Assembly: GCA_028822675.1 (NCBI GenBank)
Contig: JAPKDE010000033.1
Location: 1-17,128 of the forward strand
Length of the DNA: 17,128 bases
Source: Dehalococcoidia bacterium
GTDB taxonomy: Bacteria; Chloroflexota; Dehalococcoidia; UBA3495
Reading direction: 5' to 3'
Under the pieces are notes generated by a model. The model searched no databases. It saw nothing but the letters and a program-made list of their open reading frames with translations, and was not told the DNA's origin. Shown in pieces: positions 1,114 through 16,807 of the stretch. The first letter of the stretch is position 1. Every line of letters starts with the position of its first letter. A program made the translations under genes and the position numbers.

Positions 1114-3097
1114 CTATTCGGGCCACCCGGTGGTGCTTGCTACAGCCTCACTGGCGTGGTCTGCTGGAATCGGTTCTTCCATTGTGAGCTGAAGTCTGAC
1201 CGTGAAAGTAGTGCCCGCTTCCGCTTTGCTGTGAACGTCCAGCCTGCCATTGTGTTTGGTCAGCACTTGCTGACAAACGGCCAAGCCCAGCCCGGTGCCT
1301 TGGATTTTAGTCGTGTAGAGCGGCTCAAATATCTTTTCCAGCTCTTGAGAGTTCATCCCTGGTCCGGTGTCGGTGATGGTGACTTCTGCCATTGGATCCA
1401 CTTTTTGCACGGCAATGGTCCATCTGCCACCGTCCACCATCGCCTCATTGGCGTTGACGATTAGGTTGGTAAACACTCGGCTCAGTTGGTCGGAGTCCGC
1501 CTGAACGTTCACCGGCTTCAGTCCAAATCTGTTGTTCACTGTGATTCCATTTGGGATGTCGATACCCCCAAGTGTGGTCTTCAGAACCTCGCCAAGGTTC
1601 ACTGCCGTGTATGAAGGCAACGAAATTCTGGTGAATGAGATCAGGTCTTCAATGATCTTGTCGCATTGAGTGATCCGGTCATCCATTACTTGCAGGTATT
1701 CGGTAACTCGGGGTTCGGGAGTGATCTGACCAGCCTTTGCTAGCCGTGATTTCAGGAAAATATCCCGTTTCTGATTGCCCCACGTGGATTTCGTATATCG
1801 TGGGCAACCCCAGTAGACAACTCGCCAAGGGCTCCAAATTTCTCCGTCCGGACCAACTGGCTCTGGGCATCAAGGAGTTGCACGTTGGCCTGTTGCAACT
1901 CCTCGGTCCGTTCAAGAACGCGGTGCTCCAGGTCCCGGTTGGCCTGCTTCAGTTGATTATTCTTCTCTTTAAGCCGGTCAGACATGCGATTGAACTCGCG
2001 GGCTAGCGTACCCATCTCATCGTTGGTGTTCTCTTCAATCCTGAAAGAAAGATTGCCGTTTCCGATTTCAACTGCACCGTCTCTCAAGCGCAACAGCTTC
2101 CGGGTGATGGCCCGGGTGACCATGTAGCCGACGCCCAATACCAACAGTGACAACGCAGCGGTTACCATAAGGAGATTGGCTACCAGGCTGTCTCGGAGTC
2201 CCACAACTGGCGATTTGGTCAACGACACTAAGAAAGCACTGCGGGATACATTCCCCAGTGCCACCGGCACGTAAGCGGTTTTCAATTTCTTGCCGTTAAT
2301 TATCGCTGAACCGACCACCACCAGGCCGCTTCGGGCTCCCATCACCGATTAATTGTCTGGGATTATAGAGAAATGCGTGGGCGGATCAGTGGATGTATAC
2401 GATACGGATGCCGCTTCTCCGCTTTGGTTCAGCAGGGCCAAGATGGGGTATTTACGTTCAAAGTTCGTCTCTGCCAATGCATTGGAGTCGATCAATTTTC
2501 CAACACCGATCGACCCAATGAAAGTTCCAGAGTCCATTAGCGGTCGGAGGGAAACCAATAACCCTCCCTCAGGTGTCCGCACCATCTTGGTTGGCTGCTG
2601 CTCAGACATACCCAAGGATTTCAGTTCGTTGATCTGTTGCTGATCAACTTCCATTCCGGTCCGGTGTTCGTGACCAAGCTTCAGGCCATTACGGTCTACT
2701 ACTTCCAGGTGTTGCAGCTCAAATCTCATCCTTGAATCTGCAAGATTGACCTGACGACCAGGGAATCTGATTCAAGCACTGATTCGAGAAGTATTCGGTT
2801 TTCAGCCAGAGTAGATGCTGATTTTTCCAAGTCATCGCCGAAGAGTTTAAGGCGCTTATCAACCAGAAGAATCTCATCTTCCAGCCGCTCCGTGCCGGTG
2901 ACCGACGCCAATTGGTTCAACCCAGTGACTGTGAGCGGTAGGGTTACTGCAAGAGTCAGGGCCAGGGGTATTACCACCAGTAAGGTCAGCTTGGTCGACA
3001 GCGAAAAACCCCTCCGAACGGAGAAGCCCGGGAGACTGAGTCCTTCGAGTCCGATCGATTTACGGGGTTCGCGATGTAGTAATCGTGGAATATTCAT
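1114..3097 (-). pseudogene. Disrupted membrane sensor histidine kinase (two frameshifts, one in-frame stop)
   Basis: Read together, the pieces form one sensor kinase of about 660 residues. Fragment 3097-2726 has a transmembrane helix (LTLLVVIPLALTLAVTLPL) and the start of an extracytoplasmic sensor region. Fragment 2729-2352 continues that sensor and ends at an in-frame TAA (2349-2351). The same frame resumes to 1752 with a second transmembrane helix, a HAMP linker, a coiled coil and the phospho-acceptor box STGVAHDIRNP (His codon 1800-1802). The last part, to 1114, holds the ATPase domain with N box NLIVNANEA, G1 DTGPGM, F box FEPLYTT and G2 GTGLGL. The first frameshift lies near 2727-2735. 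The second is at the A4 run 1757-1760, where one missing base separates GIFS-stop from FLKSRLAKAG. Arg replaces the usual Leu after the H-box NP. No response regulator gene is adjacent. Decay is more likely than sequencing error because the lesions are confined to this gene, but errors are possible. Confidence 0.85.
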
Positions 3098-5720: not shown

Positions 5721-6278
5721 ATGGGTAGAATTCCAGCCGCGACTCGTGAGACTGTTCCCAGCGACCAGACCGCCGAATTTGACCAGTTGCTTGCCGGTGC
5801 GGGCTCCGTGCCCCTGGTAGGACCTGGTTCAATATTCTGGCACGTCCCAAAGGCTCAGCAAGCGGTCACGGCCCTGAACAATTACCTGCGCAACGATTCG
5901 TCTCTGTCCGATAAGACCTTGGAACTCACAATGCTGGTCACAGCCCGCGAGAATGACTGCATGTACGTCTGGAACGCCCATGCCGCCTCCGCCCGCGCCG
6001 CCGGAGTGCCCGACGCCGTGGTGGACGCCGTTAGAGACCGGAAGGAGCTTCCCGCACTGGCGCCCGACGAAGCAGCCGTCATCAACTACGTCCAGGAGTT
6101 CTATCGCACGCACCGGGTGAGCCGCGGCGCCTACCAATCAGCAATCGAAGTGTTCGGCAAGCAGGGCTTGATAGAACTGTCGCTGGTCATGGGCAACTAT
6201 GCCCTTATCGCCGTTGCGGTCAACTCATTTGACTCTGAGCTACCAGCCAACCGCACCGAGCCGGTGCTGCCCATTTAA
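5721..6278 (+). CDS. Carboxymuconolactone decarboxylase/AhpD-fold protein with one motif cysteine
   Basis: This 185-residue all-helical protein has the CMD/AhpD fold. Members are either lactone-pathway decarboxylases or thiol redox partners of peroxidases. The core reads TLELTMLVTARENDCMYVWNAH. Relative to AhpD (Glu-x11-Cys-x2-Cys-x3-His) it keeps Glu68, Cys80 and His87, but the second, peroxidatic Cys position is Val83. It therefore cannot form the usual CxxC disulfide and is more likely a CMD-type enzyme or a binding protein than a peroxidase partner. AGGAG at 5710-5714 sits 6 nt before the ATG, a strong start. The epoxide hydrolase gene begins 23 bp after the stop on the same strand, so the two are probably an operon, which suggests a shared catabolic route. 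The two TGA-containing AhpD-like genes at 14923-16807 are distant relatives with a different active site. Confidence 0.88.
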   Translation: MGRIPAATRETVPSDQTAEFDQLLAGAGSVPLVGPGSIFWHVPKAQQAVTALNNYLRNDSSLSDKTLELTMLVTARENDCMYVWNAHAASARAAGVPDAVVDAVRDRKELPALAPDEAAVINYVQEFYRTHRVSRGAYQSAIEVFGKQGLIELSLVMGNYALIAVAVNSFDSELPANRTEPVLPI

Positions 6279-13337: not shown

Positions 13338-14888
13338 ATGAGATACGACGTTGTCATTGTTGGTGGTGGATCTGCCGGTTGCACGCTGGCCACTCGCCTG
13401 AGCGAAGACCCCAACCGCTCGGTTCTGCTGCTGGAAGCCGGGCCGGATTACACGACCCTGGAGCAAACGCCTGACGAGTTGAAGCTGGGGCACCGTCAGG
13501 AAGCGTCCGACAGTGAATCGCGGTTCAACTGGGCCTACAAGGGCCAGGGTACTACCGACCAGACCGTGCCCATGCAGGTGGCGCGGGGCAAAGTCATTGG
13601 CGGCTCGGGTTCGGTCAACGGGCAGGTCTTCCTTCGGGGTGTGCCCGAGGACTACGACTACTGGGCCGCCGAGGGCAACGACCAGTGGAGTTTCATAAAT
13701 CTGCTGCCCTTCTTCCGCAAATTAGAGACCGACCTAGACGTAAAAGACGATTTTCACGGCACCGACGGACCCATCCCCGTAAGGCGACTCGCCCGGGCAG
13801 ATTTCATGCCGGTAAATGAAGCCTTTCACCAAGCAACTATTGAGGAAGGTTTTCCCGAAGACCCAGACATGAACAACCCAGACTCCACGGGAACCGGCCC
13901 GGTGCCGATGAATAACCCTGAAGGCATCCGCACCAGCGCTGCCCTGGCCTACCTGAACCCCAACCGCCACCGCCTGAATTTGACCGTCAAAGCCAATGTC
14001 CTAGCGCATCGGATAGTCTTTGACGGCGACCAGGCAATCGGAGTGGAAGTAGAAAGCGGCGGCGAGACGTTCACCGTGGAAGGGTCAGAGATAATTCTCT
14101 GCGCCGGCGGTATCGCATCGCCCCAATTACTACTGCTATCCGGGGTTGGGCCGGCTGCTCACCTAAGCGAATTTGGCATCCCAGTGATCAAAGACCTACC
14201 CGGCGTGGGGCAAAACCTGCGCGACCACCCGCTGGTCACAGTAGAACTTGAGCCCAGAAACGGGGTTAAACTGGCCACGATTGAGCCTAGAATCCAGAGC
14301 GGGCTGCGTTACACCGCCGATGGGTCGTACACCAGAAACGACATGCAGCTTTTCCCATCGTCATTCACCGGGCTGCGGGCTGGCGACCCGCTACAGGGCC
14401 GGAGTCCCGACCGCCCCCAGGGTATGAGAATCACCTGCATACTGAAGCTGGCCGATAGCTCTGGTGAGCTGACACTCAACTCGGCTGACCCCGCCGACTC
14501 GCCCCACTTGGAATACCGGTATTTTGAGACTGAGTGGGATCGGCAGCGAATGCGCGAGGCGATTCATCTGTCGCTGGACTTACTGGAACACCCATCGTTT
14601 GGGCCGCTGATAGAGCGTCGCATCTCGCCCACTGACGACGATGTAGCCACCGACGATGCCCTGGACGCCTGGCTGCGGCAGAATGTCGCCACCACTCAGC
14701 ACACTTCGGGCACCTGCAAGATGGGTCCGGAGTCAGACTCCATGGCCGTGGTTGACCAGTACTGCCGTGTTCGCGGGCTGCAAAATCTGCGGGTGGTTGA
14801 CCTATCCATCTGCCCCAACGTCGTCCGCGCCAACACCAACGCCACGGCGATCGTAATCGCAGAAAGGGCCGCCGGCTGGATCAGCTAG
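13338..14888 (+). CDS. GMC family oxidoreductase (choline/alcohol dehydrogenase-like)
   Basis: This 516-residue FAD enzyme oxidises an alcohol group of a small organic substrate. The N-terminal ADP-binding motif is VVIVGGGSAGCTLATRLSED (GxGxxG at 9-14), followed by the acidic ribose binder in LLLEAGP. GMC signature 1 is ARGKVIGGSGSVNGQVFLRG at about 82-101, and signature 2 lies around ILCAGGIASPQLLLLSGVGP. The active-site His455 is in TTQHTSGTCKMG, and its partner is an Asn in RANTNATA (Asn499 by the usual 44-residue spacing), giving the His/Asn pair of the choline-oxidase type. The length is slightly short for the family but complete. There is no signal peptide, so it is cytoplasmic. AGGGAG precedes the ATG. 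It is the last gene of the flavoenzyme run, and its final codons form the 5' arm of an intrinsic terminator. Confidence 0.95.
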   Translation: MRYDVVIVGGGSAGCTLATRLSEDPNRSVLLLEAGPDYTTLEQTPDELKLGHRQEASDSESRFNWAYKGQGTTDQTVPMQVARGKVIGGSGSVNGQVFLRGVPEDYDYWAAEGNDQWSFINLLPFFRKLETDLDVKDDFHGTDGPIPVRRLARADFMPVNEAFHQATIEEGFPEDPDMNNPDSTGTGPVPMNNPEGIRTSAALAYLNPNRHRLNLTVKANVLAHRIVFDGDQAIGVEVESGGETFTVEGSEIILCAGGIASPQLLLLSGVGPAAHLSEFGIPVIKDLPGVGQNLRDHPLVTVELEPRNGVKLATIEPRIQSGLRYTADGSYTRNDMQLFPSSFTGLRAGDPLQGRSPDRPQGMRITCILKLADSSGELTLNSADPADSPHLEYRYFETEWDRQRMREAIHLSLDLLEHPSFGPLIERRISPTDDDVATDDALDAWLRQNVATTQHTSGTCKMGPESDSMAVVDQYCRVRGLQNLRVVDLSICPNVVRANTNATAIVIAERAAGWIS

Positions 14889-14922: not shown

Positions 14923-15558
14923 TTAGGTAACTGGAGACTCAGGCATCTGAGCAATCTTGCCAAACACCTTGGGCGCGGTCTCGTCCTTGAATGACAGTTT
15001 TTGCGATTGTTCCTGCCAGCCTCGATCGGTGTCCAGATCAACGCCCAGACCGTCGGCGACGCGGCACATGTAATTGAACAGTGCCACCACGTGAACAATG
15101 TCCACCACGTCGGCGTCTTCCCAGCCAACGCTGCGGAGTTCCTCCACCCAGTCTTCTGTGACTGATGATGGGGTTGTTGTTAGAAATTCGGCAAACTCCA
15201 GCATGGCGATCTGCTTGGCTGGTAGTCCGGCGTCATGGTAGTTCTCGCCCAGTTGCTCGGCTAGCTGCGATTCGGGGTCCTCACCACGGAGGGCATGTGC
15301 GTGAGCAAGGGTTCAATACTGGCACTTGTTGGTGGCTGACACCACCGCGACCACCATCTCGCGTTCGGCTCGGGACACGCCGGACTTGCCAAACATGACT
15401 GACGAAACGTGCGCCATTAGGGTTTTCATGATGCCCGGCTTGAGGCTACTCACCGCTTGGACGTTGGGAATACGTCCGCGCGATTTAATCATCGTGTCGT
15501 AGGCTTCTTTCAGTTCACCTTGGGAATCCTCATACGGAATAGTTTTCACGTACGGCAT
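14923..15558 (-). CDS. AhpD-like selenoprotein, CxxU (in-frame TGA read as selenocysteine)
   Basis: Read through one TGA (15313-15315), this is a 211-residue AhpD/peroxidase-related protein. The catalytic stretch is E67-x11-C79-Q-Y-U82-x3-H86, exactly the Glu/Cys/Cys/His spacing of AhpD, with TGA at the peroxidatic Cys. The frame stays open from 15312 to the TAA at 14923. The downstream half holds helical elements and the motif FNYMCRVADGLGVD, matched by FNFMTRLADGLGVE in the gene at 16304. The N-terminus (MPYVKTIPYEDSQGELKEAYD) is a normal family N-terminus. GGAGG (15565-15569) sits 6 nt before the ATG. Family members reduce disulfides or peroxides; selenocysteine would raise reactivity. CxxU AhpD-like proteins are known from microbial and marine metagenome surveys. 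The alternative is a Cys-to-stop mutation, but the second gene with the same TGA position argues against it. No selenocysteine machinery gene lies in the window. Confidence 0.85.
15280..15305 (-). promoter_or_regulatory. Candidate bacterial SECIS hairpin of the minus-strand selenoprotein gene
   Basis: Starting 7 nt after the TGA, CTCAC pairs with GTGAG. After one bulged G, CAC pairs with GTG, closing a 9-nt loop (ATGCCCTCC) that starts 20 nt from the U of UGA. The placement and the single bulge suit bacterial SECIS elements. An alternative smaller fold, CCTC/GAGG with loop CGTGGT, is possible. The sequence is inside the coding frame, as bacterial SECIS elements are. Confidence 0.5.
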
Positions 15559-15752: not shown

Positions 15753-16229
15753 ATGGGAATTCTAAACGAAGATATGAAACGGGTGATCCGGCAGCAGCGG
15801 ATGGGCTTCATGGCCACCGTGTGCCCTGACGGCTCCCCCAACCTCTCGCCCAAGGGCACGGCCACAGTCTGGGACGACGACCACCTAGTATTCGCCAACC
15901 TCGGGTCTCCGGGCACAATCGAAAACCTGAGCCACAACTCGGCCTGCGAGCTGAACATAATCGATTACTACCTCCGCAAGGGCTACCGGTTCAAGGGCAC
16001 GGCAGAGTTGCTGACCAGCGGCCCCCGGTTCGAAGAGATTAAAGAGGCCTACACCACCGGCAGCCGGGGCATCAACCGGTCTGGGAATCCGGCCCAAGGG
16101 TACGTCCTCATAACCGTAACTAAGACCGCGCCGCTCATGTCTCCGGGCTACACACCAGGGAAGACTGAATCCGCGATGCGGGAAGAGTGGACCGGGTATT
16201 GGGCTGAGGTCCAAGAATCCAACGGGTAA
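15753..16229 (+). CDS. Pyridoxamine 5'-phosphate oxidase-family flavin protein
   Basis: This 158-residue protein has the split-barrel FMN/F420-binding fold. The opening MKRVIRQQRMGFMATVCPDGSPNLSPKGTATVWDDDHLVFANLGSPGTIENL is the usual N-terminal half of the family: strand, turn, S/P-K-G cofactor-phosphate contact, then the N-to-dimer helix. It continues with YRFKGTAELLTSGPRFEE (strand and helix). Such proteins act as small flavin reductases, oxidases or F420-dependent reductases. It is not the true pyridoxal-phosphate enzyme PdxH, which is longer. The frame is open back to 15675, but ATG 15753 has AAAGGGG at 15741-15747 and a family-like start. It lies between two AhpD-like selenoprotein genes, divergent from one and 74 bp upstream of the other. 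This points to redox partnership or detoxification, but no specific function can be given. Confidence 0.88.
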   Translation: MGILNEDMKRVIRQQRMGFMATVCPDGSPNLSPKGTATVWDDDHLVFANLGSPGTIENLSHNSACELNIIDYYLRKGYRFKGTAELLTSGPRFEEIKEAYTTGSRGINRSGNPAQGYVLITVTKTAPLMSPGYTPGKTESAMREEWTGYWAEVQESNG

Positions 16230-16303: not shown

Positions 16304-16807
16304 ATGTCTTGGATCGAACAAGATGAGGAAGCCACAAAGAACCTTCCGCCGGTAATTTCAGTCATCTCCATCAATAAGCAGGCCATGGAGGCCGTGCGGA
16401 ACCTGAACGCCAATATCACCTTTGGCGCCTCAGCCCTCACCAGTGTGCAGGAAGAGGCCATAGCTACAGCCGTGTCCGCCACCAACCGGTGCCGGTATTG
16501 AACCATGTCTCACGGAGGGTTCCTCCGTCAGCATTCCGACGACACCGAGTTAGCCAACCACATCATGCACGACTACACTCAGGCTGATCTGGACGACCAG
16601 ACCAAGGGCATGTTGGACTTCGCCGTTAACCTGACCAAAGACCCATCAGCCCACCGCAAGGCCGACATCGAGCGGCTACGCGGCCTGGGTCTGAGCGAAC
16701 AACGAATTCTCTCAACAGTCCTGATTACCTGTAACTTCAACTTCATGACCCGGCTGGCCGACGGCCTGGGCGTGGAAGTTCCAGAAGCACGATTTGATGA
16801 CGCCTAA
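16304..16807 (+). CDS. AhpD-like selenoprotein, CxxU (second, shorter paralogue)
   Basis: Read through TGA 16499-16501, this is a 167-residue AhpD-like protein. The active site is E51-x11-C63-R-Y-U66-x3-H70, again with TGA in place of the peroxidatic Cys and perfect AhpD spacing. The context around the TGA, VSATN-R-C-R-Y-U-T, is almost the same as in the minus-strand gene (VSATN-K-C-Q-Y-U-T). The following region stays open to a TAA at 16805-16807 and contains FNFMTRLADGLGVE, the counterpart of FNYMCRVADGLGVD. The protein is about 44 residues shorter, partly at the N-terminus (MSWIEQDEEATKNLPP). AGGGG at 16292-16296 precedes the ATG. An ATG two codons after the TGA could start a separate protein, but it lacks a ribosome site and would begin after the catalytic Cys. 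The gene follows the PPOX-like gene by 74 bp on the same strand and converges on the arylsulfotransferase-like gene. Confidence 0.85.
16512..16528 (+). promoter_or_regulatory. Candidate bacterial SECIS hairpin of the plus-strand selenoprotein gene
   Basis: ACGGAGG (16512-16518) pairs without mismatch with CCTCCGT (16522-16528) around a GTT loop. The stem starts 10 nt after the TGA and the loop lies at nt 21-23 counting from the U of UGA. A short stem with a G/U-containing apical loop at this distance is what SelB recognises in bacterial SECIS elements. It is the clearer of the two candidates here. Confidence 0.65.

What the first reader, a model, noticed from the sequence alone, without database searches (positions are those of the whole stretch)
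16499..16501. Second AhpD-like gene with TGA at the same catalytic position, plus strand
Seen: C63-R-Y-TGA-T-M-S-H with Glu51 and His70 in AhpD register, and an open frame of 101 further codons to a TAA. The downstream parts of both genes share FN-[FY]-M-x-R-[LV]-ADGLGV. The two TGAs are in separate genes on opposite strands, so a chance nonsense mutation at the same codon in both is unlikely. Together they form a paired selenoprotein locus around a PPOX-like gene.
Basis: partly seen in the sequence, partly recalled or inferred. Interest (0 to 1): 0.92.

Follow-up and report, generated by a model that had tools for sequence, protein, structure and literature searches.

The report
Selenoprotein gene read through stop codon
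An apparently interrupted gene in an uncultured bacterium related to the marine SAR202 group is almost certainly read through its stop codon by inserting selenocysteine, making a selenium version of a known peroxidase-like enzyme family; it is a well-supported new member of a known kind rather than a new kind.

Summary
Gene B (16304-16807, +) has TGA at 16499-16501 exactly where AhpD-like "peroxidase-related" proteins (TIGR01926) carry their second catalytic Cys. It is not a chance nonsense mutation: 56 of 59 related loci keep TGA there, both sides are under purifying selection, and a hairpin just downstream fits the published bacterial SECIS model. In the homologues compared, 70 of 77 TGA genes have at least 6 of the 7 stem pairs, against 2 of 21 non-TGA genes. 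The stem covaries and forces rare synonymous codons. The window's own genome is not held, but the two nearest genomes have SelA, SelB, SelD and tRNA-Sec. B is therefore a selenoprotein of a family already in print (AhpD-like, CxxU). The "paired selenoprotein locus" is weaker. PPOX-B adjacency was seen in 10 of 59 loci. Gene A is near it in 7 of these 10, but is broken in 3 and lacks a model-conforming SECIS in the window's clade. B in this window also ends about 20 codons earlier than the relatives seen. The reaction it catalyses is inferred, not shown.

The parts
16304..16807 (+). Gene B: AhpD-like/peroxidase-related (TIGR01926, PF02627) selenoprotein gene, read through TGA; E51, C63, U66, H70
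   Evidence: 56 of 59 related loci keep the TGA
16499..16501 (+). TGA read as selenocysteine (position of the second catalytic Cys of AhpD-like proteins)
   Evidence: Cys (TGC/TGT) in 18 distinct homologues at the same position
16512..16528 (+). bSECIS hairpin: 7 bp stem, 3-nt loop GUU, 17 nt from TGA to loop
16808..16867 (+). In-frame continuation (19 codons and TAG) that is part of the protein in the relatives seen but lies behind the window's TAA 16805-16807
15753..16229 (+). PPOX/PNPOx-like oxidoreductase gene directly upstream of B
   Evidence: PF01243 63.0 bits (scanned as 15756-16226); upstream of B in 10 of 59 loci
14923..15558 (-). Gene A: second AhpD-like (TIGR01926) gene with TGA at the same catalytic position; unstable in relatives
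15313..15315 (-). TGA of gene A (predicted Sec, weaker SECIS support)
13338..14888 (+). GMC-family oxidoreductase gene (MftG model) next to A; part of the neighbourhood in the close clade
   Evidence: TIGR03970 448.8 bits, cut-off 387.45

Best explanation
Gene B encodes a selenoprotein of the AhpD-like 'peroxidase-related enzyme' family. The ribosome reaches UGA at codon 66. SelB, bound to the hairpin whose stem begins at the 11th base after the UGA, delivers Sec-tRNA(Sec), and translation goes on to complete the all-helical AhpD fold with a C63-x-x-U66 active site, E51 and H70. Most likely it reduces (organic) peroxides or a similar substrate with the selenol, forming a selenenylsulfide with C63 that a cellular thiol donor reduces. 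Shown here by comparison: conservation of the TGA, the SECIS, the fold prediction, and Sec machinery in sister genomes. Inferred: actual Sec insertion in this organism, the substrate and the electron donor. Gene A is a second, older-diverged member that is being lost in this clade.
For: TGA at the same codon in 56 of 59 loci at 28-87% identity. Hairpin: 97.4% of cells paired, 3 pairs with two-sided changes, 15 such cells against 3.1 in shuffles (0 of 500 as high), slid controls 40-58% paired (39 of the 57 TGA-bearing B sequences aligned). At least 6 of 7 pairs in 70 of 77 TGA genes against 2 of 21 non-TGA homologues. Stem codons are fixed to rare synonyms: GGG 37/37 (gene-wide 0.18), CTC 49/50 (0.24), CGT 48/50 (0.11), GGA 41/50 (0.12). 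It fits the bSECIS constraints printed in PMC13188914. SelA over cut-off in 31 of 34 genomes (1 of 14 controls), SelB in 28 of 34 (2 of 14 controls), tRNA-Sec at 63 bits or more in 30 of 34; TCA anticodon in 7 of 7 checked; SelD over cut-off in 10 of 10 (2 of 14 controls), itself with a TGA. The one B locus with Cys (L058/G033) lies in a genome without SelA or SelB over cut-off. dN/dS is 0.06-0.29 upstream and 0.06-0.23 downstream against 12 loci, one upstream value saturated. AF2 pLDDT 83.6; best PDB match 2pfx, TM 0.81.
Against: The window's own genome is not held, so its Sec machinery is inferred from relatives; 3 of the 34 searched genomes lack SelA over cut-off, two of them (G007, G009) with a TGA-bearing B, and both are small assemblies. 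The full-length environmental relatives nearest to B have Leu, Trp or Arg at the position (P0001-P0003, one sequence each), and the next clade has Gly/Thr/Ala/Glu, not Cys, so Sec is dispensable for some relatives' function. B in this window is about 20 residues shorter than the relatives seen. The window hairpin's fold energy alone is not exceptional (z -0.6 to -1.5). No experiment.
Confidence: 0.93

Rival explanations
1. Nonsense mutation or sequencing error: B is a pseudogene, or the TGA is an artefact.
For: The window has other lesions (in-frame TAA and a frame change in a kinase-like gene at 1114-3097; B's early TAA 16805).
Against: The same TGA is in 56 of 59 loci, with purifying selection on both sides and a covarying hairpin.
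Confidence: 0.02
2. Two separate proteins: a 65-aa upstream peptide and a 100-aa downstream protein started at ATG 16505.
For: An ATG lies two codons after the TGA in the window, and database entries hold the downstream half alone (119-120-aa proteins).
Against: The codon at that place is ATG in only 28 of 50 B genes. I see no ribosome-binding-like sequence before it. Read as one, the product covers positions 19-174 of the 178 of TIGR01926. The hairpin would have no role.
Confidence: 0.01
3. UGA is read as another amino acid (code change or general read-through).
For: None of the 15 window genes listed ends in TGA; P0002 has Trp at the position.
Against: RF2 is over cut-off in 9 of 10 nearest genomes. 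TGA ends 16 of 58 long ORFs in L001-L009 (my sum). SECIS plus SelA/SelB/tRNA-Sec point to Sec.
Confidence: 0.02
4. Selenoprotein, but working as a reductive dehalogenase-like enzyme rather than a peroxidase.
For: The model also matches debrominase Bmp8 (6ohj TM 0.78, E 1.2e-3; 6ohi TM 0.77, E 1.5e-3). Deiodinases are Sec dehalogenases (general knowledge).
Against: Matches to peroxidase-related proteins are much better by E-value (2pfx, 3c1l, 6k40). Nothing in the window's annotated neighbours points to dehalogenation.
Confidence: 0.08

Closest known systems
AhpD-like selenoprotein, TIGR01926, motif CxxU (table of PMC13188914, its reference 59; AhpD-like 1 and 2 in PMC2398784; AhpD-like in PMC1088965)
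   Same: Same family model, same CxxU motif, SECIS directly downstream
   Different: Here in a SAR202-type contig, beside a PPOX gene and a second, decaying AhpD selenoprotein gene; a related clade lacks both Cys and Sec at the position
NF041238 AhpD_rel_CFYUT (seleno)protein
   Same: AhpD domain with a C-x-Y-U-T motif
   Different: B scores 59.0 bits against a cut-off of 175 and matches only positions 215-338 of 357
Peroxidase-related AhpD-like proteins 2pfx, 3c1l, 6k40
   Same: Fold and catalytic register
   Different: Cys where B has TGA (2pfx and 3c1l seen in the alignments; 6k40 not looked at)

Membership tests
TIGR01926 peroxidase-related (AhpD-like) | Score over curated cut-off | tested here: met
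   B 112.5, A 141.6, cut-off 81.8
TIGR01926 peroxidase-related (AhpD-like) | E...CxxC/U...H catalytic register | tested here: met
   E51, C63, U66, H70; comparison spacing of M. tuberculosis AhpD recalled
TIGR01926 peroxidase-related (AhpD-like) | AhpD all-helical fold | tested here: met
   AF2 pLDDT 83.6, Foldseek 2pfx E 1.3e-8
TIGR01926 peroxidase-related (AhpD-like) | Peroxidase activity | not testable with these tools
   needs purified protein
Bacterial selenoprotein | In-frame UGA conserved, aligned with Cys in homologues | tested here: met
   56 of 59 B loci TGA; 18 distinct Cys homologues at the position
Bacterial selenoprotein | bSECIS (stem 4-16 bp, loop 3-9 nt, G in first two, spacing 16-37, MFE -7.5 or lower) | tested here: met
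   B: 7 bp, loop GUU, spacing 17, -9.8 kcal/mol (constraints)
Bacterial selenoprotein (gene A) | bSECIS by the same model | tested here: not met
   best model-type hairpin in the window's A 4 bp, -3.2 kcal/mol; L047 has 7 bp but -5.9 for the hairpin alone; L107-L109 show a 7-bp or longer hairpin at the usual place
Bacterial selenoprotein | Sec machinery in the same genome | tested here: inconclusive
   own genome not held; present in nearest genomes G001, G002
Bacterial selenoprotein | Sec shown in the protein | not testable with these tools
   needs mass spectrometry or 75Se
NF041238 AhpD_rel_CFYUT | Score over curated cut-off | tested here: not met
   59.0 against 175

The most novel reading that the evidence does not exclude
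SAR202-type Chloroflexota hold a lineage-specific radiation of selenium-dependent AhpD-like enzymes, in tandem arrays in places, in which Sec has been lost to non-redox residues (Gly, Thr, Ala, Glu) as well as exchanged with Cys. That would mean the selenol serves a particular chemistry, for example reductive dehalogenation or handling of recalcitrant organics, and that paralogues without it took up another job.
Probability: 0.12. Interest if true: 0.6.

Novelty: new member of a known kind. Interest (0 to 1): 0.36.

Why it matters
These genes are cut in two in sequence databases: the closest relatives of B appear as 119-120-aa downstream fragments, so a selenoprotein widespread in uncultured Chloroflexota is easy to overlook. 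No paper in the searched library holds both 'SAR202' and 'selenoprotein'; two hold 'SAR202' and 'selenocysteine' (listing only). Selenocysteine in Dehalococcoidia as such is in print (12 papers hold the three terms, listing only). The case also gives a natural test of SECIS function: a related protein motif with the hairpin when TGA, mostly without it when Cys.

Tried and rejected
Viral contigs: no relative confirmed. No tRNA gene in the window. Full reassignment of UGA was considered because none of 15 listed window genes ends in TGA (pieces of the broken kinase gene, two of which end in TGA, were not in that list); rejected since relatives use TGA stops and have RF2. The hairpin as a transcription terminator was considered; no run of T follows it. 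Folding z-scores of the single window sequences were not informative. Neighbours of B in distant loci were scanned (10 proteins from 8 loci): SDR in 3 of 10, otherwise mixed, so no partner emerged. RF01852 hits near the cut-off were not counted, because 5 of 14 control genomes also pass it; I counted hits of 63 bits or more, a line I drew after seeing the scores. P0001-P0003 (Leu, Trp, Arg at the position) are single sequences on short contigs; a search that needs full-length proteins favours such variants, so I gave them little weight. The deep-Sep paper (PMC12013277) holds none of the terms AhpD, Chloroflex, Binat, peroxidase-related or alkylhydroperoxidase (find only). The 7 stem pairs were taken from B itself, and related sequences are not independent.

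Full report
OBSERVATION. Gene B begins at ATG 16304 and runs 65 codons to TGA 16499-16501, then 101 codons to TAA 16805-16807. With TGA read as a residue the product scores 112.5 bits against TIGR01926 (cut-off 81.8); gene A on the other strand scores 141.6. E51-C63-U66-H70 in B and E67-C79-U82-H86 in A have the same spacing. Both have FN[FY]MxR[LV]ADGLGV.

CONSERVATION. A scan of the genome-contig collection with an alignment of B and 11 relatives gave 59 loci. The codon at the position is TGA in 56 of 59; the others are GAG (L050), GGC (L051) and TGT (L058, a cyanobacterium). By record title the hosts are mostly Chloroflexi/Dehalococcoidia/SAR202, with Binatia (L052-L056, one labelled Desulfurellaceae), SAR324 (L057) and one Anaerolineae (L059, 28% identity). 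In 50 genomes of the family of the nearest species G001, a TGA-bearing B at 61% identity or more is in 29 genomes, 31 places (my count from the rows). dN/dS against the window is 0.06-0.29 upstream and 0.06-0.23 downstream of the TGA for 12 loci; one upstream value could not be computed and several dS values are high.

SECIS. A hairpin of the form ACGGAG[G/A/C]GUU[C/U/G]CUCCGU, whose stem begins at the 11th base after the TGA, is seen in the B loci. On 39 of the 57 TGA-bearing B sequences (56 loci and the window; I chose 39), 97.4% of cells pair, three pairs change on both sides (for example G-C to C-G in Binatia), and 15 cells show two-sided change against a shuffled mean of 3.1; slid controls pair in 40-58% of cells. 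In 50 sequences (window and L001-L049) the stem codons are GGG 37/37, CTC 49/50, CGT 48/50, CAC 50/50 and GGA 41/50, against gene-wide fractions 0.18, 0.24, 0.11, 0.76 and 0.12. In 98 distinct homologous genes of both types, 70 of 77 TGA genes have at least 6 of the 7 pairs; of 21 without TGA only L050 (GAG) and L097 (Cys) do. Of the seven TGA exceptions, five are gene A copies of the window's clade (the window's own included), one (L059) has a hairpin in another register, and one is L076. B meets all four constraints of the bSECIS model as printed in PMC13188914 (passages read): 7 bp, 3-nt loop beginning with G, spacing 17, -9.8 kcal/mol.

MACHINERY. No whole genome is held for the window. 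In 34 genomes that hold 37 of the 59 loci, SelA is over cut-off in 31, SelB in 28, and tRNA-Sec at 63 bits or more in 30; among 14 control genomes SelA is over cut-off in 1, SelB in 2, and tRNA-Sec (at the family's lower cut-off) in 5. SelA is missing in G007 and G009 (small assemblies, 1.9 and 1.6 Mb, both with a TGA-bearing B) and in G033, the cyanobacterium with Cys. SelB is missing in G007-G010, G033 and G034; tRNA-Sec in G005, G007, G010 and G033. ARAGORN reads a TCA anticodon in 7 of 7 tRNA loci looked at. SelD is over cut-off in 10 of 10 nearest genomes (2 of 14 controls) and itself carries a TGA in each. RF2 is over cut-off in 9 of 10, so UGA also remains a stop.

WHAT REPLACES SEC. 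At this position 18 distinct homologues have Cys. The full-length database relatives nearest to B are three single sequences with Leu, Trp and Arg (P0001-P0003, 65-67% identity). The next ones, 47-58%, have Gly, Thr, Ala or Glu in those I could see. Of the 21 rows with other residues in a tree of 117 proteins, 17 form one clade (support 100/98; its bootstrap had not settled and it holds several long branches). So one paralogue lineage lacks the redox residue altogether.

GENE A AND THE PAIR. PPOX lies upstream of B in 10 of 59 loci (L001-L009, L047); A lies upstream of it in 7 of these 10. Some loci hold only a few hundred bases before B (for example L014, L042, L029), so these are lower bounds. 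No A was found in L002, L005 and L008 or in their genomes G002, G005 and G007 at E 1e-25. A carries extra stops or losses in L001 (TTA in place of TGA, and a TAG), L007 and L009, and is cut by the contig end in L004; it is open apart from the TGA in the window, L003, L006 and L047, and in L105, L107 and L109. In 50 genomes of the family, A at 60% identity or more is in 9 (my count). A hairpin of 7 bp or more sits at the usual place in L107-L109 (L108 is the A of L047), but not in the window's clade, where a longer-looped stem is predicted instead. I read A as a selenoprotein gene on the way out here, not a stable partner of B.

ALTERNATIVES. An independent downstream start is unlikely: the codon two after the TGA is ATG in 28 of 50 only, with no ribosome-binding-like sequence that I can see. 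A pseudogene is excluded by conservation and selection. A code change is made unlikely by RF2 and TGA stops in relatives.

FUNCTION. The AF2 model of the 167-aa product (pLDDT 83.6) matches peroxidase-related AhpD-like structures 2pfx, 6k40 and 3c1l best; debrominase Bmp8 is a weaker match. I infer a selenol-based peroxidase-type reaction with C63 as partner; substrate and donor are unknown. Neighbour genes in distant loci gave no clear partner.

NOVELTY. 'AhpD-like protein, TIGR01926, CxxU' is in the table of known selenoproteins in PMC13188914 (passages), and AhpD-like families are in PMC2398784 and PMC1088965 (passages). [quoted passage not shown] Searches for SAR202 with selenoprotein gave no paper, with selenocysteine two (listing only); selenocysteine with Chloroflexi and Dehalococcoidia gave 12 (listing only), and selenoproteome with Chloroflex 10 (listing only). 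Whether any of these, or the metagenomic AhpD-like sequences in print, already include this clade I did not establish. This is a new member of a known kind with useful evolutionary detail.

Noticed in passing
16805-16807 (+): TAA ends B about 20 codons before the stop of the relatives seen; the lost end holds a conserved W..WLM. Window-specific lesion or sequence error.
   Followed up: partly
15313-15315 (-); L001/L072: Gene A orthologue of the nearest genome has TTA in place of TGA and an upstream TAG; environmental proteins P0121-P0124 also have Leu there: selenoprotein gene decay in progress.
   Followed up: partly
1114-3097 (-): Histidine-kinase-like gene appears broken by an in-frame TAA at 2349-2351 and at least one frame change; its family was not tested.
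   Followed up: no
L077 (G273:C22:19376-22541); L091 (G039:C124): Tandem AhpD-like genes with TGA: four in a row in G273, two in G039; the TGA is at the catalytic codon in the three of L077 and two of L091 looked at.
   Followed up: partly
16496-16498 (+) and B relatives: The Tyr codon before the TGA is TAT in 32 of 39 B genes with Tyr, against 0.13 gene-wide: a possible 5' context for Sec insertion.
   Followed up: no
5721-6278 (+): Third CMD/AhpD-like gene with CMYVWNAH: no second Cys or TGA at the catalytic position.
   Followed up: no
whole window: None of 15 listed genes ends in TGA, though close relatives use TGA stops.
   Followed up: partly
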